Below are positions 4,945-48,136 of a stretch of DNA of 50,453 nucleotides, in pieces. The stretch's first letter is position 1, and each line of letters opens with the position of its first letter. This DNA is from Verrucomicrobiota bacterium (GTDB lineage: Bacteria > Verrucomicrobiota > Verrucomicrobiia > Limisphaerales > UBA1096). A model generated the notes under the pieces. That model saw nothing but the letters and a program-made list of their open reading frames with translations, was not told where the DNA came from and did not search any database. A program made the translations under genes and the position numbers. The stretch spans positions 17,364-67,816 of the forward strand of contig JACNJE010000109.1 of NCBI GenBank assembly GCA_014382705.1, read 5' to 3'.

Positions 4945-4958
4945 CGCTTGGCCAAGCG
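4945..4958. repeat. Perfect CGCTTGGCCAAGCG palindrome after giant gene
   Basis: The motif begins five bases after the TAA stop of the giant gene and precedes the sulfatase gene. It is directly followed by the hairpin at 4962-4982. Confidence 0.9.
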
Positions 4959-4961
4959 GCA

Positions 4962-4982
4962 CCCTCTTCCGGCGGGAGAGGG
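4962..4982. repeat. CCCTCT...AGAGGG hairpin repeat, copy 1
   Basis: A nine-base stem with one mismatch (CCCTCTTCC against GGGAGAGGG) is separated by three bases. A closely related, perfect version lies at 34047-34069. There is no T-run, so it is not a classical intrinsic terminator; it looks like a dispersed intergenic repeat. Confidence 0.6.
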
Positions 4983-5019: not shown

Positions 5020-6423
5020 ATGATGAATCCAAGGTTGCAAGCTGCGCGCCACCTGCTTGGGGCCGCCCTGCTGCTTGGGCTGGCCTCGGCCGCCTTGGCC
5101 AAGCCGCCCAACATCATCCTCATCCTCACCGACGACCAGGGGTGGAACAACAGCGAGGTGCCGATGATCCCGTCGCGCACCGACACCCGCTCCGACTATT
5201 ACCTCACGCCGAATTTCAAGCGGCTCGCCGACTCGGGGATGACTTTCTCGCAGGCGTACGCGCCCCACCCGGTCTGCTCGCCGTCGCGCCATTCCATCCA
5301 GTTCGGCATGACGCCGGCCAAGCTCAAGAAAACCAGCAACCGCGCTGTCAACTACCCGGAGCCGTTCCCCGTCCGCTCCCTCCCGCAGGTGCTCAAGTCG
5401 ATCGATCCCGCGTACCGCGCGGCGCACTTCGGCAAGTGGCATATGCACCGCCATCCCGCCGAGCTGGGCTACGACGCCTCCGACGGCCGCACCGGCAACC
5501 ACACTGCGCGGCAGTTGACCACAGACCAGACCAAGCATTTTCCGCACGACGACCCCAAGCGCTCCGTCTCCCTCACCGACAACGCCGTGCAGTTCGTCCG
5601 GCACCAGGCCCACGCCGGCGCGCCGTTTTACCTGCAGGTGTCGCACTACGCCATCCACCTCTCGGCTGAGGCCAAGCCGGCCACGCTGGCCAAGCACAAG
5701 GCCCGCACGCCGGGCAAGGTGCACACTGCCTACTGGTACGCGGCGATGATTGACGATCTCGACCACGCCGTGGGCCGCATTCTTGACGTGCTCGACGAAC
5801 TCAAGCTCACCGACAGCACCTACGTGTTCCTCACCTCCGACAATGGCGGCACCGCGAGGCAGTATCCGCACTTCAACAAGCCGCTCCGCGCCGGCAAGGG
5901 CACCTATTACGAGGGCGGCCTGCGCGTGCCGTTCTTCGCCGCCGGCCCCGGCATCAAGGCGGGCACCTACTCGGCCGTGCCGGTCGTCGGCTACGATTTT
6001 CTCGCGACCTTCGCCGACCTGGCCGGTTCGCCGGAGAAACTGCGGGAGGGACGAGTTCCACCTCGTCCCCAATCCTTGGCCGGATCGGCAGCGGGATTAC
6101 CCGAAGGCATCGAGGGCGGTTCCATAAAACAAGTTTTGCTCAACGGCGGTGAGGGCGTCGTTCGCCGGCCCCGGCCCGGGCTTTATTTTTATCGGCCGCT
6201 CGACTCGGTGCTGATTCGGGACGGCCACAAGCTCCGCCGCACACACCGCACCGGGGGGATTGAGCTTTACGATCTCTCCGGGGATCTCTCCGAGACCGCC
6301 AACCTCGCCGCCGCCGCCCCCCACTTGGCCAAGCGCATGCAAGTCGCGCTCGAGGAGTGGATCGAGGAGATCGACGCCACCACCCCGTCGCCGCTCGATC
6401 GCCGGGTTCGTCGCCGGCCTTAG
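5020..6423 (+). CDS. Sulfatase (Cys-type, secreted)
   Basis: An arylsulfatase-family enzyme that hydrolyses sulfate esters, probably of polysaccharides. The start is one of two adjacent ATGs (5020 or 5023), because a typical signal peptide follows and ends in A-L-A before KPPN. The family landmarks are in order: LTDDQG metal-binding Asp pair near residue 40, the C-S-P-S-R formylglycine signature with Cys at residue 86, the FGKWH segment, and LTSDNGG in the second metal site. At about 467 aa it has normal length. Activity would need a formylglycine-generating enzyme, not seen here. A TTGGCCAA motif (5095) encodes the signal-peptide cleavage site and another lies at 6325. Its stop codon overlaps the stop codon of the convergent gene. 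The substrate cannot be told. Confidence 0.92.
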   Translation: MMNPRLQAARHLLGAALLLGLASAALAKPPNIILILTDDQGWNNSEVPMIPSRTDTRSDYYLTPNFKRLADSGMTFSQAYAPHPVCSPSRHSIQFGMTPAKLKKTSNRAVNYPEPFPVRSLPQVLKSIDPAYRAAHFGKWHMHRHPAELGYDASDGRTGNHTARQLTTDQTKHFPHDDPKRSVSLTDNAVQFVRHQAHAGAPFYLQVSHYAIHLSAEAKPATLAKHKARTPGKVHTAYWYAAMIDDLDHAVGRILDVLDELKLTDSTYVFLTSDNGGTARQYPHFNKPLRAGKGTYYEGGLRVPFFAAGPGIKAGTYSAVPVVGYDFLATFADLAGSPEKLREGRVPPRPQSLAGSAAGLPEGIEGGSIKQVLLNGGEGVVRRPRPGLYFYRPLDSVLIRDGHKLRRTHRTGGIELYDLSGDLSETANLAAAAPHLAKRMQVALEEWIEEIDATTPSPLDRRVRRRP

Positions 6424-7586
6424 CGCATCGGCACGGCCGCGCCCGGCTTGAGGGCGCGCTTTGGCATCTCCGCGAGCGTGTCGAAGGTGCGCATCGTGTC
6501 CACCATCTCGATGGTGTTACGGCTCTCGTCGAACGTGCCGCTCTTTGTGTCCAGCACGCCGCCCGCGTCGAGGCCGAGGTGCTTGACCATGAACGGATAC
6601 ATTGCCTGCCGCTTCGAGGCCTGATAGCCGTGTCCTTCGTCGGCAAAGTGCGTGTTCTCCGCCTTGGCCTCCGCGCCGTAGTATTTGTAGATCGACCGGA
6701 TGAACGGGTACTCGACCTCCGGCGTGTTTTTCGTCCAGTCGCCCCCGACGGAGATGAGCTTGAGCGGGCGCGGCGCGGCCAGCGCGGCAAACTCCGCGTT
6801 GTTCGTCTCCAGCTTGGGCGTCTTGTGGATCGGCATGCCGCTCTCGCAATTGCAGCCTCCGAAGAAATTCGCCGACACCATCACCACCGGAACGCTCACC
6901 GTCACGCGCTCGTCCACCATCGTCAGCAGAAATGTCTGCGTGCCGCCGCCGGAACAGCCGGTGACACCGATGCGCTTGGAATCCACCTGCGGAAGGGTCT
7001 CGAGAAAATCCACTGCGCGGATGCTGCTCCACGTTTGCAGAGTGAGAGCCTGTGAATGGTTATGATCCCAGCCGAGATGCTTCGAGTCGCCAAAGCCGAT
7101 CATGTCGTACGAGAACACCACCGCTCCCATTCGCGCGAGCGTGGCGCAGCGGTGTTGCTGGTCGGGCCGCTGCCGTCCGCCCTCCGGCCCCCGGTAGTGG
7201 CCGTGCGGACAAAGCACGCCGGGCCTTTTTCCCTTATGCCCAAGCGGCCGGTACAGGTTGCCGTAGACGAAAAAACCGGGCCGCGCCTCGAAGGCCGCCG
7301 ACTCCACCGTGTAGCCGTCGTACCGACGCTTGTTCTTGATGAGCGGGTTGAGCGGCGTGCGCTTGGGCAGCGGGTCGAGCTTGGCTCCGGTCAGGAACTG
7401 CTGCCGCACCGCTGCGGCGCGCGTCTTCCACTCGGCGAGGTTCGAGTGCGTCGCGGCCATGCGCTTGAGCTGCGCCACCGCCTCGGCCTCGGAGTGGTAG
7501 TTGCCCTGGCAGAGGGTTGGCTTGTCGTTGGATTCCGCTTGGCCAAATGGCGCAGCGATACAAAGGAAAAATAACAGGCGTTTCAC
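6420..7586 (-). CDS. Secreted alpha/beta hydrolase (acetyl-esterase-like)
   Basis: The start is taken as GTG at 7586, because the sequence there begins a short signal peptide ending in P-F-G-Q-A before ESND; the longer open frame upstream runs through intergenic DNA. The 388-residue product has the alpha/beta-hydrolase nucleophile elbow G-C-S-G-G-G (Ser near 212), a preceding DMIGFGDS segment, and a late D-E-G-H-G-Y that supplies the likely catalytic His. This is the type often annotated as acetylxylan esterase or dienelactone-hydrolase-like in Planctomycetes and Verrucomicrobia. It overlaps the sulfatase tail to tail by four bases, with both stops in the overlap. The cleavage site is encoded by a copy of the palindromic motif (7539). 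Substrate unknown; an ester of a plant or algal glycan is an inference. Confidence 0.8.
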   Translation of the reverse strand: MKRLLFFLCIAAPFGQAESNDKPTLCQGNYHSEAEAVAQLKRMAATHSNLAEWKTRAAAVRQQFLTGAKLDPLPKRTPLNPLIKNKRRYDGYTVESAAFEARPGFFVYGNLYRPLGHKGKRPGVLCPHGHYRGPEGGRQRPDQQHRCATLARMGAVVFSYDMIGFGDSKHLGWDHNHSQALTLQTWSSIRAVDFLETLPQVDSKRIGVTGCSGGGTQTFLLTMVDERVTVSVPVVMVSANFFGGCNCESGMPIHKTPKLETNNAEFAALAAPRPLKLISVGGDWTKNTPEVEYPFIRSIYKYYGAEAKAENTHFADEGHGYQASKRQAMYPFMVKHLGLDAGGVLDTKSGTFDESRNTIEMVDTMRTFDTLAEMPKRALKPGAAVPMR

Positions 7587-10045: not shown

Positions 10046-10306
10046 GTGTCGCTTGGCCAAGGTTATGGTCGCCATTGGCTGAATGGATTCTTTTGGCTAA
10101 CAAAGGGGCAAGTGCACGGTTCAACTCCAACGACGGGGCAGCGATTTGATCGGCGACAGTTTTTACTGAAAGCCGCCGGCGGGCTTGGCGGCGCGGCTTT
10201 GGCGGGCCTGATGCAGCAGGAGGCGCGGGCTGCACGACCGGGCGCGGACGATCCGCTCGCACCGTGATGGCCGCACTTCGATCGACGGGTCGAGCCACAT
10301 GGACGC
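10046..10306 (+). pseudogene. Truncated 5' duplicate of a DUF1501 gene
   Basis: The DNA here is a diverged copy of the start of the DUF1501 gene at 10695. The reading frame gives S-T-P-T, then D-R-R-Q-F-L-L-K-A with a Tat-like hydrophobic stretch and M-Q-Q-E-A-R-A, and a TGA at 10265. Past the stop, similarity returns for a few bases (CGAGCCACATGGAC, matching the P-S-H-M-D codons of the intact gene) after a deletion of about 35 bases, and then ends. The upstream region with GGCTAACAA is also duplicated (about 10062 onward against 10632 onward). It retains no catalytic or C-terminal part and is judged a decayed fragment. Confidence 0.7.
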
Positions 10307-10694: not shown

Positions 10695-12149
10695 GTGAGC
10701 AGGTCAACTCCAACGGTGCCGCTTGGCCAAGCGCACTTCCCGCAGCGCCACGATCGACGGCAGTTTTTGCTCAAGGCGGGCGGCGGTGTCGGCGGCTTGG
10801 CCTTGGCTGGTTTGCTGCAACAGGAGGCACAGGCGGCGCAGCCAAGCGCAGGCAACCCGTTGGCATCCCGGAACCCTCACTTCGCGCCCAAGGCCAAGCG
10901 CGTTATCTGGCTGTTTATGCACGGCGGGCCAAGCCACATGGACCTGTTCGACCCCAAGCCGGACTTGGCCAAGTACGCCGGCCAACCGTTGCCGGGCAGT
11001 TTCGGCGAGGTGATGACCCGCCGCAAAGTCGCGAAGAATCCCCTGCTTGGCCCGGTCAAACCGTTTCGGCCGCACGGCCAATCGGGGCTCGAGATCAGCG
11101 AGTTTCTCCCGCACACGGCCCGGCATGCGGACGACCTCTGTGTGCTGCGCAGTTGCCACGGCGACAGCGTCAACCATCCGCAGTCGGTTTACCAAATGAA
11201 TACCGGCTCGATCCTGATGGGCAAACCGAGCCTCGGCGCCTGGGTGGCTTACGGTCTGGGAACGGAGAATCGCGACATGCCGGCGTTTGTCGTGCTGCCG
11301 GATCCGGGCGGCGGATTGAAGGGCGGCCCTCCGGCCTGGGGCAGCGGGTTTCTCCCGGGCAGTTTTCAGGGCACGACGCTGCGGCCCGGGGCCAATCCCA
11401 TATTGAATTTAAAACCGCCGCCCGGCATCAGCGGGCGCAGCCAGCGCCAGATGCTCGACCTCATCGGCGAGCTGAATCGCGACCACTTGGCGGCGCGGGA
11501 TTTCGACGATCGACTCGCCGCCCGCGTGAATGCCTACGAGTTGGCATTCCGTATGCAGTCGGCCGCGCCGGATATTGTGGACATCTCCCGCGAAACTGAA
11601 GCCACGCGACGCCTCTACGGCATCGGCCAAAAAGAGACGACCGAGTTCGGCACGCGCTGCCTGCTGGCGCGCCGGATGATCGAGAAGGGCGTCCGCTTCG
11701 TGCAGCTCTACTCCGGCGACACCGGTGGCTGGGATGCCCACTCCAACGTCCTCGACAATCACACAAAATATTGCCGGCGCACCGACCTGCCGATCGCCGG
11801 GTTGTTGACCGACCTGAAGGCGCGCGGGCTGCTCAACGACACACTCGTCATCTGGGGCGGCGAGTTTGGCCGCATGCCGATGAGCGAACAGGGCACCGGC
11901 CGCGATCACAATCCGTGGGGCTACTCTGTCTGGATGACGGGAGCCGGCGTGCGCGGCGGCATGGCCTATGGCGCGACTGATCCGGTGGGGCTGCGCGCGG
12001 AACAAAACAAGGTGCACGTTCACGACCTGCACGCGACCATCCTGCACGCGCTCGGCATCCAACACGAGCACCTCACCTACTTTCACAACGGCCGGGACGA
12101 ACGCCTCACCGACGTCGGCGGCCGCGTGGTGACGGAGATCTTTGCGTGA
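10695..12149 (+). CDS. DUF1501 family protein, Tat-type signal
   Basis: A member of the DUF1501 family, which has an alkaline-phosphatase/sulfatase-like fold and is usually encoded next to DUF1549/DUF1553 cytochromes in PVC bacteria; its reaction is not established. The GTG at 10695 is the only plausible start before the twin-arginine-like D-R-R-Q-F-L-L-K-A motif and hydrophobic stretch. Typical features follow: K-R-V-I-W-L-F-M-H-G-G-P-S-H-M-D-L-F near residue 70, L-R-S-C-H-G-D-S, W-G-G-E-F-G-R-M-P, G-R-D-H-N-P-W-G and V-H-D-L-H-A-T-I-L-H near the C-terminus. Its TGA overlaps the next ATG (TGATG), so translation is probably coupled. Compared with the truncated copy upstream it has seven extra residues, which include L-G-Q-A encoded by the palindrome. 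Confidence 0.9.
   Translation: MSRSTPTVPLGQAHFPQRHDRRQFLLKAGGGVGGLALAGLLQQEAQAAQPSAGNPLASRNPHFAPKAKRVIWLFMHGGPSHMDLFDPKPDLAKYAGQPLPGSFGEVMTRRKVAKNPLLGPVKPFRPHGQSGLEISEFLPHTARHADDLCVLRSCHGDSVNHPQSVYQMNTGSILMGKPSLGAWVAYGLGTENRDMPAFVVLPDPGGGLKGGPPAWGSGFLPGSFQGTTLRPGANPILNLKPPPGISGRSQRQMLDLIGELNRDHLAARDFDDRLAARVNAYELAFRMQSAAPDIVDISRETEATRRLYGIGQKETTEFGTRCLLARRMIEKGVRFVQLYSGDTGGWDAHSNVLDNHTKYCRRTDLPIAGLLTDLKARGLLNDTLVIWGGEFGRMPMSEQGTGRDHNPWGYSVWMTGAGVRGGMAYGATDPVGLRAEQNKVHVHDLHATILHALGIQHEHLTYFHNGRDERLTDVGGRVVTEIFA
10720..10733. repeat. Perfect palindrome inside the DUF1501 leader
   Basis: Read as P-L-G-Q-A between the start and the Tat motif. The paralogous fragment at 10046-10306 lacks it together with seven adjacent bases. 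Confidence 0.9.
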
Positions 12150-13975
12150 TGCGCTCGGTTGGGTCGATCCTCCTGCTGACCGGGTTGGCGCTTGGCCAAG
12201 CGGAGGAAACGGTTCCCATCGTCGAGCGCCCGATCACGCGGAAAGATCGAGACCACTGGGCATGGCGTCCGCTTGGCCAAGCGGCGATTCCGCAGGCACC
12301 ACAGGCCAAGCGCTTGGCCAACCCGGTCGACCACTTCATCGCCGCCCGGCTGCAACCGCACCAACTCAGCCTCGCTCCGAAGGCCGATCGCCGGACATTG
12401 ATGCGCCGACTGCACTTCGACCTGCTCGGCCTGCCACCAAGCGCGGAGGCTGTTGCCGCGTTTGAGACGGATCAACGACCCGACGCCTATGAACGGCGGC
12501 TCGACACCCTGCTCGCTTCTCCGGCCTATGGCGAACGCTGGGCACAGCACTGGCTCGACCTCGCGCGCTTCGCCGAGACGGACGGCTTCGAGCACGACAA
12601 GGTGCGCCCCAACGCATGGCGCTATCGCGACTGGCTCATCGCCGCGCTCAACGCCGACCTGCCGTACGACCGGTTTGTGCTGCATCAACTCGCCGGCGAC
12701 ACCGTCTCCGCCGAGGCGGCGTTGGCCACCGGCTTTTTGCTCGCCGGACAGGACATGCCGGACATCAATCTCAACGCCGAGCGCCGGCACATGGTGCTCA
12801 ACGAGATGACCGCCACGGTCGGCTCGGTGTTCCTCGGGCTGAGCATCGGCTGCGCACAGTGCCACGACCACAAGGCCGACCCGATCAGTCAGGCCGATTT
12901 TTACCGGCTACGCGCTTTTTTCGAGAGCGGCCTCACGTTCAAGGAACAGGAATTGGGCAAAAACAAGGTCAAGGGCCGCGTGATGGCGGCGAGCAGCAAA
13001 CCGACGCCAACGAAACTTGCGGTTCGCGGAGACTTTCGCCGCCCGGGGCCAACTGTCCGTCCGGCCATTCCGCGCATCGCACTCGGCACAGCACCGGCCG
13101 AGTCAGCCACCGACCGCGCCGGGCTGGCCCGATGGATGACTGGTCGATCGAACCCGCTTTTCCAACGCTCGATCGCCAACCGGCTTTGGCAGTTTCACTT
13201 CGGCCAACCGCTGGTGGCGACGCCGAACGACTTCGGCAATACCGGCGAGCGCCCCACCCATCCGCAGTTGCTCGATTGGTTGGCGGCCGAACTGCCCAAG
13301 CGCGGCTGGAGCCTCAAGTCGATGCACCGGCTGCTGCTCACATCGGCCACGTACCGACAGGCCAGCCGCGGTGCCGGTGAGTCGTGGGAAAAACGTTTGG
13401 CTGCCGATCCCGCAAACCGATTGCTCTCCCGGATGAACCGGCGGCGCCTCGACGGCGAAACGCTGCGCGACACGATGCTCGCCGTGAGCGGCCAAACCAC
13501 CCAACGCGCCGGTGGCCCCGGTGTCCGCCCGCCGCTCCCACGCGAGATCACCAGCACGCTGTTGAACAACCAGTGGCCGGTCAGCAAATCCGCTGAGGAT
13601 CACCACCGCCGAAGTGTTTACCTGTTCGCCCGCCGAAACCTCCGTTACCCGCTGTTCGAGCTGTTCGATCGGCCGGACGGCACGGTGTCCTGCGCGCGCC
13701 GAAAGGAATCGACCACCGCGCCGCAGTCGCTGATATTGCTGAACTCAGAATTTTCCCTCGCCAGTGCAAGGGCCTTGGCTAAGCGTTTGGCCAAGCTGGA
13801 TCAGCCCACAGCCGTTCACGAACTGTACAGCCGTTTGTTTCAGCGGCGGCTGAGCGAGAGCGACCTGCGCTTGGCGAAGCGATTCCTAGTTGAACAAAAA
13901 CCGAACGGCATCGATCCAATAGCCCGGCTTGCCTTAGCGTTGTTAAATCTCAACGAATTCCTATTTCTGGATTAA
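12149..13975 (+). CDS. DUF1549/DUF1553 (PSCyt2-PSD1) cytochrome, short form
   Basis: The family is found almost only in Planctomycetes/Verrucomicrobia, always close to DUF1501. The start is the ATG at 12149, within TGATG at the end of the previous gene; a GTG at 12146 is also possible. A signal peptide ends in L-A-L-G-Q-A before EETVP. DUF1549 spans about residues 40-250, with L-H-F-D-L-L-G-L-P-P, Y-W/H-W-L-D-L-A-R-F-A-E-T-D and one haem site C-A-Q-C-H (Cys near 235). DUF1553 follows to residue 600 (T-G-E-R-P-T-H-P-Q-L-L-D-W-L and Y-R-Q). The N-terminal PSCyt1 haem domain of the homologue at 26079 is missing, so it is a short form. Role inferred: periplasmic electron transfer with its partners. 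Confidence 0.9.
   Translation: MRSVGSILLLTGLALGQAEETVPIVERPITRKDRDHWAWRPLGQAAIPQAPQAKRLANPVDHFIAARLQPHQLSLAPKADRRTLMRRLHFDLLGLPPSAEAVAAFETDQRPDAYERRLDTLLASPAYGERWAQHWLDLARFAETDGFEHDKVRPNAWRYRDWLIAALNADLPYDRFVLHQLAGDTVSAEAALATGFLLAGQDMPDINLNAERRHMVLNEMTATVGSVFLGLSIGCAQCHDHKADPISQADFYRLRAFFESGLTFKEQELGKNKVKGRVMAASSKPTPTKLAVRGDFRRPGPTVRPAIPRIALGTAPAESATDRAGLARWMTGRSNPLFQRSIANRLWQFHFGQPLVATPNDFGNTGERPTHPQLLDWLAAELPKRGWSLKSMHRLLLTSATYRQASRGAGESWEKRLAADPANRLLSRMNRRRLDGETLRDTMLAVSGQTTQRAGGPGVRPPLPREITSTLLNNQWPVSKSAEDHHRRSVYLFARRNLRYPLFELFDRPDGTVSCARRKESTTAPQSLILLNSEFSLASARALAKRLAKLDQPTAVHELYSRLFQRRLSESDLRLAKRFLVEQKPNGIDPIARLALALLNLNEFLFLD
12189..12202. repeat. Perfect palindrome at a signal-peptide cleavage site
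   Basis: Encodes the L-G-Q-A that ends the signal peptide of the DUF1549/1553 protein. Confidence 0.9.
12270..12283. repeat. Perfect palindrome in mature DUF1549/1553 protein
   Basis: Read as P-L-G-Q-A-A in the linker before DUF1549; a third core with one arm changed follows 41 bases later (12314, read R-L-A-N). Confidence 0.9.
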
Positions 13976-14051: not shown

Positions 14052-15419
14052 ATGAAAAACTGGATTCCTTACATCATTGTTGCATCTTCCACGGTTTGGG
14101 GAGGTCAGGCTGCTGAGAAGCCCAACATCGTGCTGATCATGGCGGACGACATGGGCTACGAGGCCTTGTCGGCCAACGGCAGCGAGTCCTGCAAGTCGCC
14201 CAATCTCGACAAACTTGCCGCGAAAGGCGTCCGCTTCACCAACTGTTTTTCCAACCCCATTTGCACACCGTCGCGTGTGAAGCTCATGACGGGCCAGTAC
14301 AATGTCCGAAACTACGTGAAGTTCGGCTGGCTGGACCGTGAGCAGACGACCTTCGCTCATCAGCTCAAGGCTGCCGGTTATGCGACCGCCATCGCCGGCA
14401 AGTGGCAACTCGGAAAGGACAAGGATTCACCGCAGCATTTCGGCTTCGAGCAATCCTGCCTCTGGCAACACACCCGCAGTGGCCGCTCCAACGAGGGTGG
14501 CAAAAAAATCGACCGACGCTTCGTCAATCCTCAACTGGAAATCAACGGTCTTGAGAAGGATTTTACCAACGGTGAATATGGCCCGCAGGTCTGTACCGAC
14601 TTCCTTTGTGACTTCATTGACCAAAACAAGAAGAAGCCCTTCCTCGTTTACTATCCGATGATTCTCACCCACTGTCCCTTCGACCCCACGCCGGATTCCA
14701 CCGACTGGGATCCCAAGCGGCTTGGCTCCACCACCTACAAGGGCGATCGCAACGATCCGCAACGCCACTTCCGCGACATGGTCGCCTACGCCGACAAGGC
14801 CGTCGGACAGATCGTGGCGCAGTTGGAAAAGTCCGGCGTGCGAGATAACACCTTGATTATATTCACGGGGGACAACGGCACGGACACGCCGATCGTCACC
14901 CCATGGAACGGCACCCAGGTCGTGGGAGGCAAGGGCACCATGAGCGACACCGGCACGCGAGTACCGCTCATCGTCAACTGGCCGGCCGGCATCCAAAAGC
15001 CCGGGCGCGTGGTCGATGATCTGGTCGAGTTCACCGACATATTTCCGACCCTCAGCGATGTTACCGGCGCCAAGCTCCCCAAGGATCATCCCGCCGATGG
15101 CACCAGCATCTTCCCCGTGCTGCAGAACAAAGCCGATACCCGCAAGAAGGATTGGATTTACATCTGGTATCGCAAGCAGGTCATGGTTCGTGACAAGCGG
15201 TACTCCCTGTTGGCTAATCAAGATGGTAGCCGTGCCGCTTTGACCCGCTATCGTGGTCCCTTCGACGGCAAACAGTTGAAGGACAACGAACTCACCAAAT
15301 CCGAACGCGCCCTGAAGGAACAGTTTGAGGCCACGATCGCCGGCTTGGCCAAGACCCGCCTCTCCACCGCGAGCAAAGAAGGCCGTATCCAAGGGTTGAA
15401 GAACAAGAACAACCGATAA
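14052..15419 (+). CDS. Sulfatase (Cys-type, secreted)
   Basis: Second sulfatase of the window. The ATG at 14052 is chosen because a clean signal peptide follows (M-K-N-W... G-G-Q-A-A before EKPN). Key elements are I-M-A-D-D-M-G near residue 30, the formylglycine signature C-T-P-S-R with Cys at 71, A-G-K-W-Q-L-G-K near 115-122, and F-T-G-D-N-G-T-D for the second metal ligands. The product is about 455 aa. It sits 76 bases after the cytochrome gene and only six bases before the dehydrogenase gene, so it belongs to the same operon and presumably acts on the same substrate pathway. It is clearly different from the sulfatase at 5020. One motif copy (15345) reads G-L-A-K. Substrate unknown. Confidence 0.92.
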   Translation: MKNWIPYIIVASSTVWGGQAAEKPNIVLIMADDMGYEALSANGSESCKSPNLDKLAAKGVRFTNCFSNPICTPSRVKLMTGQYNVRNYVKFGWLDREQTTFAHQLKAAGYATAIAGKWQLGKDKDSPQHFGFEQSCLWQHTRSGRSNEGGKKIDRRFVNPQLEINGLEKDFTNGEYGPQVCTDFLCDFIDQNKKKPFLVYYPMILTHCPFDPTPDSTDWDPKRLGSTTYKGDRNDPQRHFRDMVAYADKAVGQIVAQLEKSGVRDNTLIIFTGDNGTDTPIVTPWNGTQVVGGKGTMSDTGTRVPLIVNWPAGIQKPGRVVDDLVEFTDIFPTLSDVTGAKLPKDHPADGTSIFPVLQNKADTRKKDWIYIWYRKQVMVRDKRYSLLANQDGSRAALTRYRGPFDGKQLKDNELTKSERALKEQFEATIAGLAKTRLSTASKEGRIQGLKNKNNR

Positions 15420-29769: not shown

Positions 29770-29777
29770 CCGGAACC

Positions 29778-32218: not shown

Positions 32219-32232
32219 CGCTTGGCCAAGCG
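32219..32232. repeat. Perfect palindrome between prfC and the ABC-F gene
   Basis: Eleven bases after the prfC stop and 15 bases before the TTG start of the ABC-F gene on the same strand. Confidence 0.9.
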
Positions 32233-42400: not shown

Positions 42401-45400
42401 GTTTCCACGGCAAACAGTGCGCTGGTTGCGGAGGCGACGGGAAGCACCCTGCCGCTGACCGAGTTAGAGGGGGAGGACGCGGGGGATTATTATGTGGTGG
42501 TGTCGAACATTGCCGGTGAAGTGACCAGTGACACGGCAACGTTGGCGGTGGATTTGCCACCGACCGTCACGCAGTTGAGTGCGTCGTCAAACGCAGACGG
42601 GCTGGATTTGTCTGCGACGGCGGAGGTGGCGGGAGAGGAGCCGTTAACCTATGAATGGAGCCAGAACGGTTCATTCCTGGCGGGAGGCGACATCGATCTG
42701 GTTGCCACCATGAGCGGAACTGAGCCAATCAGTTATCAGTGGGTTCACAACGACCTGCCGATTGACGGCGCGGCGGGCAACACACTGCGCTTGGCCAAGG
42801 CGGGGGTCGATGCGTCGGGAGATTATCATGTCATGGCCTCCAACCGGCTGGCCACCGTGACGAGCGACACCTTGGCCATCGCCGTCGTACCGGCCACCAC
42901 GGCGACGGAGCTTGCCGGCTCGGTTTCCGTGTACGAGGGGGAGACGATCGAGTTGTCCGTCACGGCGTCCGGACTCTCCCCGCTGGCATACGAATGGAGC
43001 TTGGGCGACACGATCCTCGACGGGGCAACCAGCGCGACGTTGAGCCTAAGCAATCTCGAGGCCGAAGCCGCCGGAGACTACAAGCTGGCGATCAGACATG
43101 AAGACCGGCTCGTGGGGCAGGCGACCATTTCAGTCATCGTCCCCGCGGCAAGAGTCGTGACACAGCCGGTTGGCGGCAGTGTGGGCGTGGGGGGCTCCCA
43201 TACATTCGAGGTCGTTGCCACCGGCTCTGAGCCGATCAACTATCGATGGTTCCATGAGGGCACGCTTATCGAGGAGGCCACGGGAAGCACGCTCACCTTG
43301 GAAGGCCTGACCGGCGATGACGCGGGGGGCTATCACGTTGAAGTGACCAATGAAACATTGCCGTGGGGCGGCACCGACACCAGTGCCACGGCCAACCTGG
43401 TCGTACTGATCCCACTGGCCATCACGCACCTGACCGACTCCAAGCTGGAGGGAGAGGGCAATTGGCAATGGGCACTGCAGGGGGGGACCATCGATTTATC
43501 CGTCACCGCAGAGGGCACGCCGCCTCTAAGCTACCAGTGGACAAAGGATGGCGGGGCCATCGAGGGTGCCACCGGGCCGGGCATGACCCTTGCCAACCTT
43601 GAAGAGGATGACGCGGGACTCTACACGGTGAAGGTGAGCAACGCCACGGAGCAACTGGAGTCCGACCCGTTCAAGGTCGTGATTCTCACGGCCACGACGG
43701 CCCAGCCCGCCAAAATCGTCCTGCAACCGGAAGCTGTCAGCGCGACGCTCGGAGAGACTGCGGAATTGAGCGTGTACGCCGAGGGCTCCGAGCCGATCAG
43801 TTACCAATGGTATTTCGCGGGCGAGCCGATCGAGGATGGAACCGAACGAGTCCTGTCCATTCCCGACGTGCAGAAGGCGGACGCCGGCGAGTACCACGTC
43901 GTCGTCTCGAACGACGGCTATCCGTGGGGCGCGACAGAGACCAGCGACACGGCGGCCCTTACGATCGAGTCCCCGCCGGTGATTACGAAGTTGACGGAAT
44001 CCATGACTGTGTTGAGAGGGGATACCATCGAACTGTCCGTCACGGCGACGGGTGATGAGCCGCTGAGCTACCAGTGGAGCAAGGGGGGCACGGAAGTCGA
44101 GGGGGCCACCGGCTCGAACCTGACTTTGGCTGATGCGTCCCAGTCGGACGCGGGCGACTACACGGTCACGGTCAGCAATGCCGTGAGTGAGGTGGTTTCC
44201 AATGTCGTCTCGGTAACCATGCCCGAGCCGGTCAGGATCGTGACTCAGCCGCAGGACGTGTTTGCGGTCGCCGGCGCATCGGCGACGATGACGGTCGTCG
44301 TCGAGGGCTCCGAGCCGATCGAATATTATTGGATGCATGACGCCAAATGGGTCGACGGCGGAAGGGGGAGCACGCTGAGCCTGAGCAATCTGCAGGCCAA
44401 GGATTTCGGGGCGTATAACGTCCTGGTCAGGAACGCAACCGGCATCGTAATCAGCGAGCCAGCGATGTTGACCGTCATGTCGCCTCCGGAGATCACGCAG
44501 TTGACCGAATCGCTCACCCTCATCCAGGGGGAGAGCGTCGAGCTGACGGTCACGGCAGATGGCCACGAGCCGTTGGCTTATCAATGGAGCAAGGGCGGCG
44601 AGGCGATCGACGGGGCGACCGCCCCGACGCTGCGCTTGGCCAAGGTGGCGCCGACCGCCGCGGGGGATTACTCGGTGAGTGTGAGCAACGCCGCCGGCGA
44701 GGCGGAGTCGGGAGTCGTGACCGTCAAGGTGATCGAGCCGGTCACGATCGTGACGCAGCCGGAGGGAGCCACCGCCATCGTCGGCGACACCGTGATGCTG
44801 CAAGTGGTGGCCGAGGGCACCGAGCCGATCACTTATTATTGGTATCACGACGGCGAACGGGTTGACGGCGCCACGGAGAGCACCCTGCGCTTGGCCAAGG
44901 TGCAGGCCGCAGACTCGGGAAGTTACAATGTTATCATGCAAAACAGCGGCGGCACGGCGATCAGTGAAATCGCCGATCTGATCGTGCTGCTGCCCCCGGA
45001 GATCACACAGTTGACGGAATCGCTGACGGTGATCGAAGGGGAGAGCGTTGAGTTGACGGTCGCGGCGCTTGGCAGCGAGCCGTTGGCTTATCAATGGCGC
45101 CGGGGTGGCGAGGCGATCGACGGGGCGACCGCCCCGACGCTGCGCTTGGCCAAGGTGGCGCCGACCGCCGCAGGGGATTACTCGGTGATCGTGAGCAACG
45201 CCGCTGGCGAGGCGGAGTCAGGAGTCGTGACGGTCAAGGTGATCGAGCCGGTCACGATCGTGACGCAGCCGAAGGGAGCAACCGCAATTCTCGGCGACAC
45301 TGTGACGCTGCAGGTCGTGGCGAACGGCACGGCCCCGATCACCTACGCTTGGTATCACGACGGCGAACGGGTCGACGGTGCCACGGAGAGCACCCTGCGC

Positions 45401-48118
45401 TTGGCCAAGGTGCAGGCGGCGGACTCGGGCGTTTATCATCTTGTTGCGTCCAACTCCGGCGGCACGGCAAAAAGCAAAATCGCCGGACTGGTGGTGGTGC
45501 TGCCGCCCGAGATTACGCAGTTGACCGAATCCCTGTCCGTGATGGAGCGGGACAGCGTTGAGTTGAGTGTCGCGGCGGTCGGCAGCGAGCCGTTGGCCTA
45601 CCAGTGGAGCCGGGATGGTGTGGAGCTTGAAGGAGCAACCGCCCCGACGCTGTCCCTGATCCGGGTGGCCCCCGCCGCTGCGGGGGATTATACGGTGGTG
45701 GCACGCAACGCCGCCGGCCAGATGGAGTCGAATGCGATCACGGTGGACGTCGTTGAGCCGATCAGGATCGTGACGCAGCCGGAGGGGGCGAACGCCACTC
45801 TTGAGGACACCGTGACACTGCGCGTGGTGGCGGAGGGAACCGAGCCGATCAATTATTTCTGGCTGCACAACGGCAGGCCGGTTGAGGGCGGCAGGCAAAG
45901 CACGCTGACGTTGACTGAACTGGAGGCCGGGGATGCCGGGGAATACGTCGTCATGGTCAGCAATATTGGCGGCCAGGCAACAAGCGAGACGGCGCACCTT
46001 TCGGTGGAACTGCCCGAGGGAGCCTACTTGGTGGAGGACTTTGACGGCCTGACGCTGGGCCCGTGGAACTCGGGGGATGATCCGGTCGGGGACGGCAGCG
46101 ACTGGACTGCGACGCCCCCTGCCGGCTGGACCGCGGAGCGGGGCGCGGGCCACGAACCGGCCGCCTCTGTCGAGTTTGACGGCTGGACATTTGTGGATCC
46201 GGTTTCCTGGCAAAAGACCGCCGGCCCGGAGCGGGACCAATTCACCAAGGGCAGCGGCGTGATCGCCGTCGCCGACTCGGCCCACACCGGCGGCGAGTCG
46301 GATGCCAAGTTCAGCGCAACCATGGCAACGCCCACGATTGACATCGCCGGAGCGGAGGCCGGTTCGCTCGTCCTGACTTACGACTCCAGTTGGCGTGAGG
46401 CGCAGCGAAAGCGGGTGTTCGCCGCTTTTGAGGAGGATTTCGAGGGGGATGACGTGGGCGAAGGGGTCACCATCGCCGGCACGGCAGTCCAGGCTCTGCA
46501 ATACGTGAGAACCGGGGGCGCTTGGCCGTGGCTGAAACTCAACGGCATCCTCAAGGTGACCGACGCCGTCTATTCGCAGAGCGGCGGCATGCTGATCAAT
46601 GATTTTTCCAATGGCGCGGCGTTCAACGAGTTTGAAATCAGCTTCCGATTGTTCATGGGCAGGGGCACGCGTCGGCCGGCGGACGGCCTGAGCGTCAGCA
46701 TCGGCAACGATCTGCCAACCCTGGCCTATCCGGCAGAGGAAGGCGTTTCCGACGCGGCCTTCCGGGTCTGCTTCGACGCTTGGGACTCGGGCGGCGGCGA
46801 GGCACCCGCCATCGAGATTTTCAACGGCAAAAAATCGGTTGCCATCCAGAAGTTTCATGGGCAAACCGCCGCCGCCGATAGCGAGAAATTCGTGACGGAC
46901 GACGGGGATTTCCTGATGATGTGGCACAAGTCGGAATGGACCGACGTCAACATCCGCGTCGCCGACGGCTTGGCAACCGTCAACTTCCGGGGCCACGACG
47001 TGATCCGGGATACGCCGATCGACCTCTCCCCCATTAAAGCCGCACAGTTCCTGTTCGCCGCACGCACCGGCGGCGCCCACCAGAAACATTATATCGATGA
47101 CATCAAGATTCGGCTGTTCGACTCGTCCCGTTCCCGCGTCACCGTAGCGTATGACGACGGCGCGCCGGTCACCCTGCTCGAACTCAACTCCCGGACACCG
47201 ACCGCCTATGATGAAACGGTCTCGCTGAAGCTGAACAATCCTACGGGGGCGCAGACTGCCGTTGTGGCCTGGGATTACCAGGGCCACGACAACTGGTGGG
47301 AGGTCGACAACATCACCGTCGCCACGGACGCCGAGCCGGAGCCGACTCTCGCCGGCTTGGCCACGGACAGGGATCGCTATGTCCTCGGTGAGCCGATCAA
47401 GGTGAGTTTCAATGATGGGCCCGGCAATCAACGGGATTGGATCGGCATCTACCGTCCAGACATGGCGCCCGGCGAGCACGGCAGCCTGGCTTGGGTCTAC
47501 GTCAACGGCAGCCCCACGCCCGGCGACGCCCTCTCCGAAGGCTCCGTGATCTTCACCAACAATCTGCCGGTGGGCAGTTACGTGGCTCGGTACTTTAAAA
47601 ATGACGGATACGGCCAGCTTGCCGATGCGGCGTCGTTCACGGTGGTGATTCCCCCCGGCGTGGCCACCGACAGGCCGCACTACGCCCCGGGCGAACCCGT
47701 CACGGTGCATTTCAACAACGGCCCCGGCGACCCGGCGGACTGGATCAGTCTCATGCCCCTCGGTGAGACCAGCAGCATCGACTGGGCGTATGTCGGCGGC
47801 ACCCGAACCGTTGGCGACGGCTTGGCCAACGGCGGCGTGACCTTCGCCGACGGGCTTCCGGAAGGGGAGTATCGCGTGATATTTCTGGCCAACGACGGCT
47901 ACCGGCAGTTGGCCAAGGCCGAGTTCATCGTCGCCGGGCAGGTCGCGCCGCCCCCGCTTGGCTTCGCGAACAACGGCGACGGCACGATCACGCTGACTTT
48001 CGAGGGCCGACTGCAGACCGCGCCAACCATCAACGGCCCGTGGCAGGACATGGACGCCACAAGCCCCGTGACCCTCCCCACCGACCAGCGGCAACGATTC
48101 ACCCGCTCGGTGAAATAA
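36491..48118 (+). CDS. Giant LamG / Ig-like / lectin-like repeat protein (about 3875 aa)
   Basis: The ATG at 36491 is chosen because a signal peptide follows (M-N-L-R-I-H-F-F-V... G-A-V-A-G). A LamG/concanavalin-like domain comes first (about 29-233), then 27 Ig-like repeats of about 85 residues (to nt 46013). The fourteenth is split by an inserted lectin-like module (nt 40917-42400) that is itself split by a LamG domain. From 46018 a beta-sandwich is likewise split by a second lectin-like module (about 46420-47125). Two copies of a Ca-binding-like D-R-x-x-Y-x-x-G-E-P domain (47350-47940) and a tail ending L-Q-T-A-P-T-I-N-G-P-W... R-F-T-R complete it. Inferred role: cell-surface adhesion to glycans or partner cells. 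No enzymatic motif was seen. Repeats are so similar that slippage or misassembly is possible. Confidence 0.88.
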   Translation: MNLRIHFFVMAFAAGCALFCPGAVAGPHFDQVGLLLPFDGTHGATSTTDVSHSAHSPAFHGNAKISAGRSKFGGTSCYFDGKGDFLTVADSEDWNFGTGDFTIEFWVLRTGVSKYEGILGESAASWNSGAPVIVIYNTKILITEGEFANKTQASTSFIANTWYHVAFSRGGGFMRLFVNGKLEGFAVDNHSYDFNEIRIGRYNVGADYDFGGYLDDLRITKGVARYPSNFALPDAMSGDAVPTITLLTESMTVAEGGSVNLSVTAVGALPLAYQWSKGGVEMSGATQSTLTLADVALSDAGVYSVAVTNSVGAVDSETITVTVLKPAGIDVQPEGGSAILGGDFTLKVVASGTEPISYQWHHKGAILDGETKSTLSLTRLRAADMGSYHVVVSNEGGEETSNSVNLSMLPTITKLTESMTPVKGEDVELSVTAAGTAPLTYQWYHSGTLIEGATSTTLFLTNFQTGDSGDYHVVVTNAEGSVTSDMVALLVPPTITRLTNDVSVIEGDTLKLSVTAVGTPPISYQWSKDDEEIPGAITPELTLAETKASDAGIYTVEVQNASGRIGPFKVTVIVLQPARIVTQPVGGRAYFGEAFAFEVVAEGTEPITYEWYQGGALLGESTGSSLSLADLIESDAGEYHVVVSNERTTDTGETVSFGKETSETVTLTVVVPPENVQLSGSLERGLDQLSATVEVTGDEEEPKTYSWSESGVLAKGDTVVLTATATGSEPFVYEWYHDGSQFDGETVNTLRLAKVQDLESGEYQVVVANEAGSETSEPMTLEVKPAGTIVELAGSVTVVEGEKLEFDVTAAGKEPLTYEWTKDGAVIDGATTTGYIVDNVTQAAVGEYKLAVKREEALLGFAAITVAVAAPPVIVTQPLGGSADLDDTFHFEVAVAGAEPITYEWYHEGEVVGEQSFLQLTDVQAEDAGDYHVVVSNIAGEVSSDTVALELVLPPEITQLSKSREGPTVDLSATAEVTGGEEEPTTYQWEVEGAILEGDNVELTVSLTGTEPISYQWVHGEETVEGGTESTLRLTDVQGVDSGDYYVVVSNKLGTEYSDVITLSVVPPPAVTELAGSITVVEGEGVELSVTAVSNESLTYQWSKGEEAVGGATASALDLGNVEASAEADYRLTVKRDGTLVGSAVITVALAVPPVIVAQPQGGSADLEDTFKFEVVAEGTEPITYEWHHDGEVVGEQRFLQLTDVQAANAGEYHVIVTNIAGEVTSETVVLTVNSPPVITQLTKSREGPAVDLTATAEVTGDEAEPKIFQWSKEGAILEGDNVELTVTLTGSEPISYQWYQGEELIEEGKASTLRLTDVQAEDSGVYRVVVSNQLGTEISEVITLSVVPPPAVTELAETINVLEGEGVELSVTAVSNESPTYQWSMGEEVMVGATAPTLDLGDVKVSSEADYRLAISNAEGLVGLVVITLAMADPPVIVTQPQGGSADAGEAFTFEVVAEGTGLEYEWHKGGTPEVLDEFKADWDDGEEVEGTSLAGATQIKDGSLHITEAANGKSGGFTVSDFTDGGTFTDFEISFRLYMTDSTCCGNGDDTSASHRPADGLSISIGNDLPDTIRLAEEGAGEGIRICFDTWDSGGGEAPAIDVWRGPDSDGPTVYIPLDDIDRDRAVGLVGNPGLIYINGPELGVSALNPNGAGTAVRFDGSKDQALRVKNHPDINITRGPWEERTWEFWFKAEQLPAAGQHQVLYEEGAHVRGISIYLTGTGDASEADLYMMAWNRAETRWGGKLNQRGGEGISTVKTTIKVDEVYHLAFVMDGDPSGNMEGTLAGYLNGKKIGEVSGVHLLYNHSGNIAFGNKWGTTVTHEGNSWGSGGMGFTGVIDDASFYSVALSEEQIVDHFENFGVQDIWPGGMVARQNFNGVTSALEEAKFKDADGDYVWMWTQGEWADVKVLFLDGNLKVNFKGHEVISEKLPPSWKPLEGPEWLFAARTGGANQTHWIDDLKIKIFADAVSTANSALVAEATGSTLPLTELEGEDAGDYYVVVSNIAGEVTSDTATLAVDLPPTVTQLSASSNADGLDLSATAEVAGEEPLTYEWSQNGSFLAGGDIDLVATMSGTEPISYQWVHNDLPIDGAAGNTLRLAKAGVDASGDYHVMASNRLATVTSDTLAIAVVPATTATELAGSVSVYEGETIELSVTASGLSPLAYEWSLGDTILDGATSATLSLSNLEAEAAGDYKLAIRHEDRLVGQATISVIVPAARVVTQPVGGSVGVGGSHTFEVVATGSEPINYRWFHEGTLIEEATGSTLTLEGLTGDDAGGYHVEVTNETLPWGGTDTSATANLVVLIPLAITHLTDSKLEGEGNWQWALQGGTIDLSVTAEGTPPLSYQWTKDGGAIEGATGPGMTLANLEEDDAGLYTVKVSNATEQLESDPFKVVILTATTAQPAKIVLQPEAVSATLGETAELSVYAEGSEPISYQWYFAGEPIEDGTERVLSIPDVQKADAGEYHVVVSNDGYPWGATETSDTAALTIESPPVITKLTESMTVLRGDTIELSVTATGDEPLSYQWSKGGTEVEGATGSNLTLADASQSDAGDYTVTVSNAVSEVVSNVVSVTMPEPVRIVTQPQDVFAVAGASATMTVVVEGSEPIEYYWMHDAKWVDGGRGSTLSLSNLQAKDFGAYNVLVRNATGIVISEPAMLTVMSPPEITQLTESLTLIQGESVELTVTADGHEPLAYQWSKGGEAIDGATAPTLRLAKVAPTAAGDYSVSVSNAAGEAESGVVTVKVIEPVTIVTQPEGATAIVGDTVMLQVVAEGTEPITYYWYHDGERVDGATESTLRLAKVQAADSGSYNVIMQNSGGTAISEIADLIVLLPPEITQLTESLTVIEGESVELTVAALGSEPLAYQWRRGGEAIDGATAPTLRLAKVAPTAAGDYSVIVSNAAGEAESGVVTVKVIEPVTIVTQPKGATAILGDTVTLQVVANGTAPITYAWYHDGERVDGATESTLRLAKVQAADSGVYHLVASNSGGTAKSKIAGLVVVLPPEITQLTESLSVMERDSVELSVAAVGSEPLAYQWSRDGVELEGATAPTLSLIRVAPAAAGDYTVVARNAAGQMESNAITVDVVEPIRIVTQPEGANATLEDTVTLRVVAEGTEPINYFWLHNGRPVEGGRQSTLTLTELEAGDAGEYVVMVSNIGGQATSETAHLSVELPEGAYLVEDFDGLTLGPWNSGDDPVGDGSDWTATPPAGWTAERGAGHEPAASVEFDGWTFVDPVSWQKTAGPERDQFTKGSGVIAVADSAHTGGESDAKFSATMATPTIDIAGAEAGSLVLTYDSSWREAQRKRVFAAFEEDFEGDDVGEGVTIAGTAVQALQYVRTGGAWPWLKLNGILKVTDAVYSQSGGMLINDFSNGAAFNEFEISFRLFMGRGTRRPADGLSVSIGNDLPTLAYPAEEGVSDAAFRVCFDAWDSGGGEAPAIEIFNGKKSVAIQKFHGQTAAADSEKFVTDDGDFLMMWHKSEWTDVNIRVADGLATVNFRGHDVIRDTPIDLSPIKAAQFLFAARTGGAHQKHYIDDIKIRLFDSSRSRVTVAYDDGAPVTLLELNSRTPTAYDETVSLKLNNPTGAQTAVVAWDYQGHDNWWEVDNITVATDAEPEPTLAGLATDRDRYVLGEPIKVSFNDGPGNQRDWIGIYRPDMAPGEHGSLAWVYVNGSPTPGDALSEGSVIFTNNLPVGSYVARYFKNDGYGQLADAASFTVVIPPGVATDRPHYAPGEPVTVHFNNGPGDPADWISLMPLGETSSIDWAYVGGTRTVGDGLANGGVTFADGLPEGEYRVIFLANDGYRQLAKAEFIVAGQVAPPPLGFANNGDGTITLTFEGRLQTAPTINGPWQDMDATSPVTLPTDQRQRFTRSVK
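38219..41638 (+). repeat. Higher-order repeat of three Ig domains, 846-base period
   Basis: Units opening with P-V-I-V-x-Q-P start at 39101, 39947 and 40793, exactly 846 bases apart; a first, 882-base unit starts at about 38219. Each has a plain Ig, a doubled half-Ig unit and an x-E-L-A-x-S-I-x-V-x-E-G-E-G Ig. The fourth is interrupted by the lectin/LamG insertion, so its end here is nominal. Confidence 0.75.
44486..46013 (+). repeat. Tandem 510-base (two-Ig) duplications
   Basis: Units opening P-P-E-I-T-Q-L-T-E-S-L start at 44486, 44996 and 45506. Between about 44594-44800 and 45104-45310 the DNA is nearly identical. TTGGCCAA recurs at 44636, 44891, 45146 and 45401, exactly 255 bases apart, always read R-L-A-K-V. 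Confidence 0.85.
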
Positions 48119-48122
48119 CCCC

Positions 48123-48136
48123 CGCTTGGCCAAGCG
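48123..48136. repeat. Perfect palindrome between convergent genes
   Basis: Five bases after the giant gene and 36 bases after the stop of the minus-strand DUF1080 fusion, so it could serve both 3' ends. Confidence 0.9.

What the first reader, a model, noticed from the sequence alone, without database searches (positions are those of the whole stretch)
4945..48136. A dispersed palindrome, CGCTTGGCCAAGCG, pervades the window
By eye I count about 54 copies of the core TTGGCCAA, with 15 perfect 14-mers (4945, 7633, 10720, 12189, 12270, 16765, 18676, 21711, 26519, 26658, 29787, 32219, 34893, 36191, 48123). At about 60% GC, roughly 0.65 cores and 0.0005 14-mers would be expected. Copies lie in unrelated genes on both strands and between genes, so no single protein motif explains them. 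The behaviour is like HIP1 (GCGATCGC) of cyanobacteria or DNA uptake sequences, but the sequence is different and I know of no report. Possible roles: methylation or restriction target, DNA uptake, nucleoid or repair signal, or a mobile short palindrome.
Basis: partly seen in the sequence, partly recalled or inferred. Interest (0 to 1): 0.88.

Follow-up and report, generated by a model that had tools for sequence, protein, structure and literature searches.

The report
Palindromic DNA self-recognition uptake tag
A short palindromic DNA word, repeated up to about once per kilobase in most sampled species of one bacterial genus, is likely the tag by which these cells would recognise and import DNA of their own kind, because the species in which two DNA-import genes are missing carry the fewest copies of the word.

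Summary
The host genome, Verrucomicrobiota-like, carries 1167 14-mers in 4.02 Mb against 1 for the reversed control. None of 287 other genomes drawn from the phylum has more than one. The repeat belongs to one genus: core 10-mer at 15 to 828 per Mb in all 21 genomes held. Copies arose by substitution, not insertion. They override codon and even amino-acid choice, and are 1.7 to 2.7 times as conserved as control windows among genomes with competence genes. Methyltransferase families PF00145 and PF01555 are in 1 and 0 of 21 genomes, which speaks against a HIP1-type methylation cause. The telling pattern is competence: comEC is missing from an otherwise kept locus in 4 species and dprA in 3, five species in all. 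These five have the five lowest densities of 21; all 13 genomes with comEC or dprA are higher. That is three independent losses, all agreeing. It is most likely a DNA uptake sequence, which would be the first palindromic one and the first outside Neisseriaceae and Pasteurellaceae. Uptake is untested and the receptor unknown.

The parts
4945..4958 (.). perfect 14-mer CGCTTGGCCAAGCG, between genes, just after a stop codon
7633..7646 (.). perfect 14-mer
10720..10733 (.). perfect 14-mer, in CDS, frame LGQ
12189..12202 (.). perfect 14-mer, in CDS
12270..12283 (.). perfect 14-mer, in CDS
16765..16778 (.). perfect 14-mer, in CDS
18676..18689 (.). perfect 14-mer, in CDS, 13 bases from another core
21711..21724 (.). 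perfect 14-mer, between genes
26519..26532 (.). perfect 14-mer, in CDS, rare third frame
26658..26671 (.). perfect 14-mer, in CDS, frame LAK
29787..29800 (.). perfect 14-mer, between genes, paired with core 29778 at 12 bases
32219..32232 (.). perfect 14-mer, between genes
34893..34906 (.). perfect 14-mer, in CDS
36191..36204 (.). perfect 14-mer, directly after a stop codon
48123..48136 (.). perfect 14-mer, after a stop codon
189..196 (.). core TTGGCCAA
5095..5102 (.). core
6325..6332 (.). core
7539..7546 (.). core
10053..10060 (.). core, between genes
10965..10972 (.). core
12314..12321 (.). core
13787..13794 (.). core
15345..15352 (.). core
15706..15713 (.). core
16632..16639 (.). core
16840..16847 (.). 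core
18405..18412 (.). core
18541..18548 (.). core
18666..18673 (.). core
19276..19283 (.). core
21299..21306 (.). core, between genes
21775..21782 (.). core, between genes
22728..22735 (.). core
25613..25620 (.). core
28248..28255 (.). core
28282..28289 (.). core
28426..28433 (.). core
28573..28580 (.). core
29778..29785 (.). core, between genes, pair partner of 29787
31266..31273 (.). core
33178..33185 (.). core, in the RF3 (prfC) gene
33292..33299 (.). core, in the RF3 (prfC) gene
34695..34702 (.). core
36228..36235 (.). core, between genes
38627..38634 (.). core
38744..38751 (.). core
42791..42798 (.). core
44636..44643 (.). core in 255-base tandem Ig repeat
44891..44898 (.). core in 255-base tandem Ig repeat
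45146..45153 (.). core in 255-base tandem Ig repeat
45401..45408 (.). core in 255-base tandem Ig repeat
47822..47829 (.). core
47909..47916 (.). core

Best explanation
CGCTTGGCCAAGCG (core CTTGGCCAAG) is likely a DNA uptake sequence: a tag that competent cells of this bacterial genus would preferentially bind and import during natural transformation. Inferred mechanism: a surface receptor, probably symmetric or dimeric because the tag is palindromic, would pull in tagged fragments; ComEC would pass one strand into the cell, and DprA with RecA would recombine it. Fragments that gain the tag by point mutation would be over-represented among recombining donors, so the tag would spread to about one per kilobase and override codon and even amino-acid choice. 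When comEC and dprA are lost the drive would stop and the copies would decay by ordinary mutation. Shown here: over-representation, restriction to one genus among the genomes searched, origin by substitution, excess conservation, and lower density in each of the three lineages where comEC or dprA is missing from an otherwise kept locus. Not shown: uptake itself, the receptor, and the step at which the tag acts.
For: Density: 406 cores in 385,499 bases, 1.05 per kb, 21 times a second-order Markov expectation; 1167 14-mers genome-wide against 1 reversed control. DNA-level pressure, from 245 predicted genes of the same sample: copies use two main reading frames (191, 138, 16); tripeptide LAK occurs 222 times against 49 expected and LGQ 179 against 36; 163 of 222 LAK are spelled TTGGCCAAG against 13 expected; non-coding density is 1.76 per kb against 0.98 in genes. 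Perfect CTTGGCCAAG copies (308) outnumber all 30 single-mismatch forms together (198, summed). Substitution, not insertion: 29 of 3531 motif windows touch an alignment gap (0.8%), against 44 of 15,636 control windows (0.3%). Conservation: sites of genomes with comEC or dprA are identical in other such genomes 1.7 to 2.7 times as often as control windows. Competence link: comEC (PF03772) found in 9 of 21 genomes and dprA (PF02481) in 12 of 21; in G288, G306 and G295 ffh is followed directly by vanZ without comEC, and in G307 comEC and vanZ are replaced by other frames; in G307, G295 and G292 dprA is missing between nuoN and its other neighbour. Core 10-mers per Mb in these five: G288 15, G306 20, G292 23, G307 133, G295 281. 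In the 13 genomes with comEC or dprA: 370 to 828 (rank test p 1.2e-4, not corrected for kinship). On the RF3 tree this is three losses, 3 of 3 independent pairs concordant. The 41%-GC low clade nests inside the clade with the highest densities, so absence there is loss. A nearly GC-matched contrast: in 17.5 kb of orthologous DNA, G307 (GC 0.466) has 2 cores and a contig binned as G342 (GC 0.490) has 11.
Against: Known uptake sequences are asymmetric; this is a perfect palindrome. Their spacing is described as more regular than random (PMC1626085 passage); here it is Poisson-like (CV 1.10, or 1.01 after leaving out gaps up to 60 bases; 5-kb bins variance/mean 0.95). Motif windows touch gaps somewhat more often than controls, though both rates are under 1%. 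Only three independent losses exist, so a kinship-corrected sign test cannot get below p = 0.25, and the 350-per-Mb line used there was set after seeing the data. Competence loss goes with lower GC (41%, 49%), so another gene lost in the same lineages could be the cause. G296 (705 per Mb) and G304 (581) have high density with neither gene found; they are 67% and 70% complete and the neighbours that mark the two loci were not found in them either. The step between G289 (323, neither gene found) and G300 (370, both genes) is small. G295 and G307 sites are still 1.6 times as conserved as controls, as a recent loss would give, but not clean decay. Type IV pilus genes and a receptor were not looked for.
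Confidence: 0.68

Rival explanations
1. A HIP1-type palindrome: a DNA methyltransferase modifies the site, and methylation-directed repair or selection makes the site accumulate, as proposed for cyanobacteria.
For: Palindromic, about one per kb, strictest in the centre; HIP1 and its alternates go with cognate methyltransferases (PMC4390886, sections read).
Against: C5 methyltransferase PF00145 is found in 1 of 21 genomes, only the window's own. PF01555 is found in 0 of 21. PF02384 gives 3 of 21 weak hits near 20 bits, one of them in a low-motif genome. PF02086, PF07669, PF05869 and others were not tested. It does not predict the match to comEC and dprA loss.
Confidence: 0.1
2. Binding site of a nucleoid, chromosome-organising or regulatory protein that was lost together with the competence genes in the same lineages.
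For: A palindrome suits a dimeric DNA-binding protein. Copies are about 5 times denser in the first 30 bases after stop codons than inside genes. Two of the three loss lineages also dropped strongly in GC.
Against: 3274 10-mer sites in this genome, with 308 perfect against 198 single-mismatch copies in the sample, is stricter than usual for regulator sites (argument as made for USS in PMC1626085, passage). Copies inside codons of many unrelated genes, at a cost in amino-acid choice, are hard to explain by local regulation. No candidate gene was found, and none was searched for.
Confidence: 0.15
3. A mobile short palindrome (REP- or MITE-like element) that copies itself into many places.
For: Strong consensus, wide dispersal, and tandem pairs at 12 bases (9 pairs in the sample).
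Against: Only 29 of 3531 motif windows inside aligned spans touch a gap. Of 1684 aligned windows that differ from the motif, 1130 are 1 or 2 substitutions away (both directions of each pair counted). Conservation stops at the 14-mer edge.
Confidence: 0.02
4. An RNA hairpin or terminator at gene ends.
For: 95 of 592 stop codons examined have a core within 45 bases. Paired copies fold well: window 29770-29810 at -13.7 kcal/mol (17 of 200 shuffles as good) and 36185-36240 at -23.2 (1 of 200).
Against: No T-run follows. Single copies fold weakly: 4939-4970 at -4.9 and 48115-48145 at -4.8 kcal/mol, 153 and 76 of 200 shuffles as good. 344 of 406 copies in the G000 sample are inside genes. The most invariant bases, GGCC, would be the hairpin loop of a single copy.
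Confidence: 0.05

Closest known systems
Uptake signal sequence (USS) of Pasteurellaceae, AAGTGCGGT type
   Same: About one copy per kb, preference for non-coding DNA but many coding copies, close pairs, perfect copies outnumber single mismatches, arises by substitution, weak where competence genes are broken (H. ducreyi) (PMC1626085, passages read).
   Different: USS is asymmetric with AT-rich flanking segments and is described as more regularly spaced than random. Here a 14-bp palindrome with no flanking signal, spaced at random, in another phylum and with no evident sequence resemblance.
DNA uptake sequence (DUS) of Neisseriaceae, with receptor ComP
   Same: Genome-wide tag thought to keep transformation within kin; dialects by lineage (PMC12616744 passages).
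   Different: About 10-12 bases, asymmetric; the receptor is a known minor pilin. No receptor is known here.
HIP1 (GCGATCGC) and alternate HIPs of cyanobacteria
   Same: Palindromic, highly iterated at about one per kb, with deviations biased to the outer bases (PMC4390886).
   Different: HIPs go with cognate methyltransferases (PMC4390886). Here two major methyltransferase families are essentially missing, and density follows competence genes instead.
Methylated RAATTY of Campylobacter jejuni
   Same: A symmetric DNA sign that decides which DNA is taken up (PMC10046745 passages).
   Different: There the CtsM methyl mark is the sign. Here the sequence itself is strongly over-represented and no shared methyltransferase was found among the three families tested.

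Membership tests
DNA uptake sequences (USS/DUS) | Short sequence over-represented genome-wide at about one per kb | tested here: met
   1.05 cores per kb in the G000 sample, 21-fold over Markov; 1167 14-mers in 4.02 Mb
DNA uptake sequences (USS/DUS) | In coding and non-coding DNA, with non-coding preference | tested here: met
   0.98 against 1.76 per kb
DNA uptake sequences (USS/DUS) | Perfect copies outnumber single-mismatch copies | tested here: met
   308 against 198 for CTTGGCCAAG (counts, summed)
DNA uptake sequences (USS/DUS) | Copies arise by substitution, not insertion | tested here: met
   29 of 3531 windows touch gaps, control 44 of 15,636
DNA uptake sequences (USS/DUS) | Carrier has transformation genes; motif decays where they are lost | tested here: met
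   comEC or dprA in 13 of 21 genomes, all at 370 per Mb or more; five species with a locus-level loss at 15 to 281. Three losses only; three further genomes (G289, G296, G304) undecided
DNA uptake sequences (USS/DUS) | Motif promotes uptake of DNA by competent cells | not testable with these tools
   needs an uptake assay
DNA uptake sequences (USS/DUS) | Specific surface receptor (e.g. ComP) | not tested
DNA uptake sequences (USS/DUS) | Asymmetric core (true of both known families, not part of the definition) | tested here: not met
   perfect palindrome; hence called a variant, not a member of USS or DUS proper
DNA uptake sequences (USS/DUS) | Spacing more regular than random (described, not defining) | tested here: not met
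   CV 1.10, 1.01 after leaving out gaps up to 60 bases; variance/mean 0.95 in 72 bins of 5 kb
HIP (highly iterated palindromes) | Over-represented palindrome | tested here: met
HIP (highly iterated palindromes) | Cognate DNA methyltransferase in carrier genomes | tested here: not met
   PF00145 1 of 21, PF01555 0 of 21, PF02384 3 of 21 weak; other families not tested
REP/MITE-like mobile palindromes | Insertion leaves empty sites in relatives | tested here: not met

The most novel reading that the evidence does not exclude
A third independent invention of sequence-tagged natural transformation, and the first with a palindromic code, in a Verrucomicrobiota genus. The drive is strong enough to raise the tripeptides LAK and LGQ four- to five-fold in the sampled tenth of the proteome, and it has faded three times where comEC and dprA were deleted. 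Iterated palindromes such as HIP1 might then be uptake codes as well.
Probability: 0.6. Interest if true: 0.9.

Novelty: new variant of a known kind. Interest (0 to 1): 0.82.

Why it matters
[quoted passage not shown] A third case in another phylum, with a palindromic word and natural losses of comEC and dprA within one genus, would show that kin-tagged DNA import evolved repeatedly. It gives a comparative test (density against competence genes) that can be run on any iterated palindrome, including HIP1. It also shows a DNA-level drive that bends protein sequence across many unrelated genes.

Tried and rejected
Rejected: (1) chance or composition; (2) codon usage or a protein motif, since both non-coding DNA and two frames carry it and LAK is spelled TTGGCCAAG in 163 of 222 cases against 13 expected; (3) mobile palindrome; (4) intrinsic terminator: no T-run, single copies fold weakly, although the two paired sites tried fold well; (5) C5 methyltransferase as genus-wide cause.

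Led nowhere: the first paper search for TTGGCCAA returned 690 papers, of which the 30 listed look like unrelated studies (listing only). So no virus rich in the motif was seen, but the first scan was incomplete. PF02384 gave only weak hits.

Not done: other methyltransferase families, type IV pilus genes, receptor search, density in mobile against core genes.

Full report
OBSERVATION. Among all 256 palindromic 8-mers the next most frequent has 9 copies. I sampled 385,499 bases of the same genome (window plus 19 stretches, 9.6% of 4.02 Mb). There TTGGCCAA occurs 406 times against 19.4 expected from a second-order Markov model. The whole genome holds 1167 14-mers and 1 copy of the reversed 14-mer, and 3274 CTTGGCCAAG against 19 reversed.

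ANATOMY. Aligning 812 flanks (406 copies, both strands) gives the consensus CGC TTGGCCAA GCG. The outer C/G is kept at 87%, the next at 66%, the next at 62%, with almost nothing beyond; substitutions in GGCC are the rarest. Perfect CTTGGCCAAG copies number 308; all 30 single-mismatch forms together number 198 (summed). Inside predicted genes (245 in the sample) the core falls in two main frames, Leu-Ala-Lys (191) and Leu-Gly-Gln (138), with 16 in the third. LAK occurs 222 times against 49 expected and LGQ 179 against 36. 163 of 222 LAK are spelled TTGGCCAAG, where codon usage predicts 13. So a DNA-level pressure overrides codon choice and even amino-acid choice. Density is 0.98 per kb in genes and 1.76 between them. 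Spacing is Poisson-like apart from close pairs, of which 9 are 12 bases apart. A peak of 5.15 per kb lies in the first 30 bases after stop codons. That count pools held stretches of 17 of the 21 genus genomes, leaving out G288, G292, G306 and G307; gene calls are my own simple predictor.

DISTRIBUTION. Of 288 genomes drawn evenly from the phylum, 10 have the 14-mer: the window's own with 1167 and nine with one each. Among 58 relatives, all 21 genomes of the genus have it (1 to 1174 copies; G288 1, G306 2, G292 7). Of 37 other genomes of the order, 34 have none, two have one and G342 has eight. Six of the eight in G342 sit on contigs C191 and C240. The first 20 kb of C191 match a held G307 stretch at 68-75% identity, while the rest of C191 and C240 match nothing among the partial genus sequences held. 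So C191 is probably a misbinned or transferred piece. The phylum is inferred from Pfam content and from the best-matching named record of a capped list, 'Verrucomicrobiales bacterium isolate ARS81', whose 35,401-base contig has the same length as G299:C41.

ORIGIN AND LOSS. An RF3 protein tree of 19 of the 21 genus genomes with six outgroup sequences (two genus genomes gave no RF3) places the three 41%-GC species almost without the motif (G288, G292, G306; support 99) inside a clade of seven (support 99) with the dense G290, G298, G302 and G296, so they lost it. G307 (GC 0.49 to 0.495 in held stretches) and the pair G289/G295 are separate. In 2338 ortholog pairs, 29 of 3531 motif windows inside aligned spans touch a gap (0.8%) against 44 of 15,636 control windows (0.3%). 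The motif rate is the higher one, but both are tiny, so nearly all copies arise by substitution. One search, which also counts unaligned ends, gives 335 windows with gaps or ends beside 3502 without. Copies present in a genome with comEC or dprA are identical in another such genome 1.7 to 2.7 times as often as matched control windows. The ratio is 1.58 in G295, 1.59 in G307, 0.98 in G289 (30 sites), 0 in G288 and G292, and 1.33 in G306 on a single site. In the undecided G296 and G304 it is 4.4 and 2.6, as in competent species.

THE COMPETENCE LINK. comEC (PF03772) is found in 9 of 21 genus genomes and dprA (PF02481) in 12 of 21. The genomes are 61 to 93% complete, so I looked at the loci. In the nine species with comEC the order, as far as contigs reach, is ffh, comEC, vanZ, a 735-residue gene, alaS; my predictor did not call vanZ in G300 and G305. 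In G288, G306 and G295 ffh is followed directly by vanZ. In G307 two unrelated reading frames replace comEC and vanZ. tblastn with comEC at E up to 10 gives nothing in these four loci except a 19-residue match at E 5.8 in G307. In nine species with dprA whose stretches I fetched, dprA lies beside a 327-residue aldolase-like gene in all nine and beside nuoN in eight; the contig of G293 ends in dprA. In G307, G295 and G292 nuoN and the 327-residue gene are neighbours, and tblastn at E up to 1 finds no dprA there. In G295 the other genes of both loci reached by the stretches are kept.

DENSITY. Core 10-mers per Mb, with genome sizes rounded to 0.1 Mb except for G000: G288 15, G306 20, G292 23, G307 133, G295 281. 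Next comes G289 at 323: neither gene found, 68% complete, neither marker neighbour found. All 13 genomes with comEC or dprA lie at 370 to 828. G304 (581) and G296 (705) lie among them with neither gene found; they are 70% and 67% complete and the marker neighbours were not found either. Exact rank test 13 against 5: p 1.2e-4, uncorrected for kinship. Counted as events: three losses, 3 of 3 independent pairs agree among 16 tree rows, sign-test p 0.25, with a 350-per-Mb line that I set after seeing the values. Scaling by the reversed control instead of by bases gives the same six lowest genomes, though control counts are only 1 to 19. GC alone does not explain it. TTGGCCAA is half GC. In samples of GC 0.556 (G295, 12 kb) and 0.559 (G290, 48 kb) genome-wide densities differ threefold. 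In a 17.5-kb orthologous stretch the G342-binned contig has 11 cores where G307 has 2.

MECHANISM. Most likely this is a DNA uptake sequence. Shown: over-representation, DNA-level action, origin by substitution, excess conservation, and lower density in all three lineages where transformation genes are lost. Inferred: preferential uptake, a receptor, and the molecular drive through biased import. The palindrome suggests a symmetric receptor, which is speculation.

ALTERNATIVES. A HIP1-type methylation cause is disfavoured: PF00145 in 1 of 21 genomes, PF01555 in 0 of 21, PF02384 in 3 of 21 at about 20 bits; other families remain untested. A DNA-binding protein lost alongside the competence genes cannot be excluded. 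The mobile-element reading fails. A terminator reading lacks T-runs, and single copies fold no better than shuffles, though two paired sites fold well.

LITERATURE. PMC4390886 (abstract and outline, sections 2.3 and 2.5.3, part 1 of 2 of 3.4) on HIPs. PMC1626085 (passages) on USS: about one per kb, non-coding preference, perfect over mismatched copies, not insertions, weak USS with broken competence genes in H. ducreyi. PMC12616744 (passages): only two families known. PMC10046745 (passages): C. jejuni RAATTY. I saw no report of this motif or of uptake sequences in Verrucomicrobiota (motif strings; listings; zero papers; listings). Of (167 papers, 12 listed) I looked at passages of the two listed papers that name Verrucomicrobia; PMC7305173 ties ComEC loci to high recombination in soil bacteria, PMC10219603 only touches the words, and neither passage set names a motif. 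The library lacks most subscription journals.

VERDICT. A real signal found across one genus, best read as a palindromic uptake sequence; new variant of a known kind; confidence 0.68.

Noticed in passing
genus genomes, first 30 bases after stop codons (e.g. window 4945, 36191, 48123): Motif density peaks at 5.15 per kb right after stop codons against about 1 per kb in genes; no T-run follows. Cause unexplained.
   Followed up: partly
G288, G292, G306 (GC 0.41) and G307 (GC 0.49): Four of the five species with comEC or dprA loss are also the AT-richest of a genus that is otherwise about 54-62% GC in held stretches. Loss of transformation may have removed GC-biased recombination; or both have another cause.
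   Followed up: no
G000:C53:508-1560 (L121): The window's genome alone among 21 carries a C5 DNA methyltransferase (PF00145, E 3.8e-59), on a 5.7-kb contig; possibly a restriction-modification or mobile piece.
   Followed up: no
G342 contigs C191 and C240 (L351-L353): A bin of another family in the order holds motif-rich contigs; the first 20 kb of C191 resemble a G307 stretch at 68-75% identity, the rest and C240 matched nothing held. Likely contamination or transfer.
   Followed up: partly
window 36560-48118 and 15-4940: Giant genes of about 3850 and 1640 residues made of many Ig-like domains; the larger has motif copies at an exact 255-base period, 44636-45401.
   Followed up: no
G000 sample, 385 kb: Other over-represented 8-mers CACCTACA, GGATTACA, GGGATTAC (24-25 counts each, both strands pooled), and strong CTAG depletion (0.19 of expected).
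   Followed up: no
G307:C40, L372:8131-9576: A 481-residue frame with a weak DNase I-family match (33.8 bits, cut-off 372) sits where comEC should be in G307.
   Followed up: no
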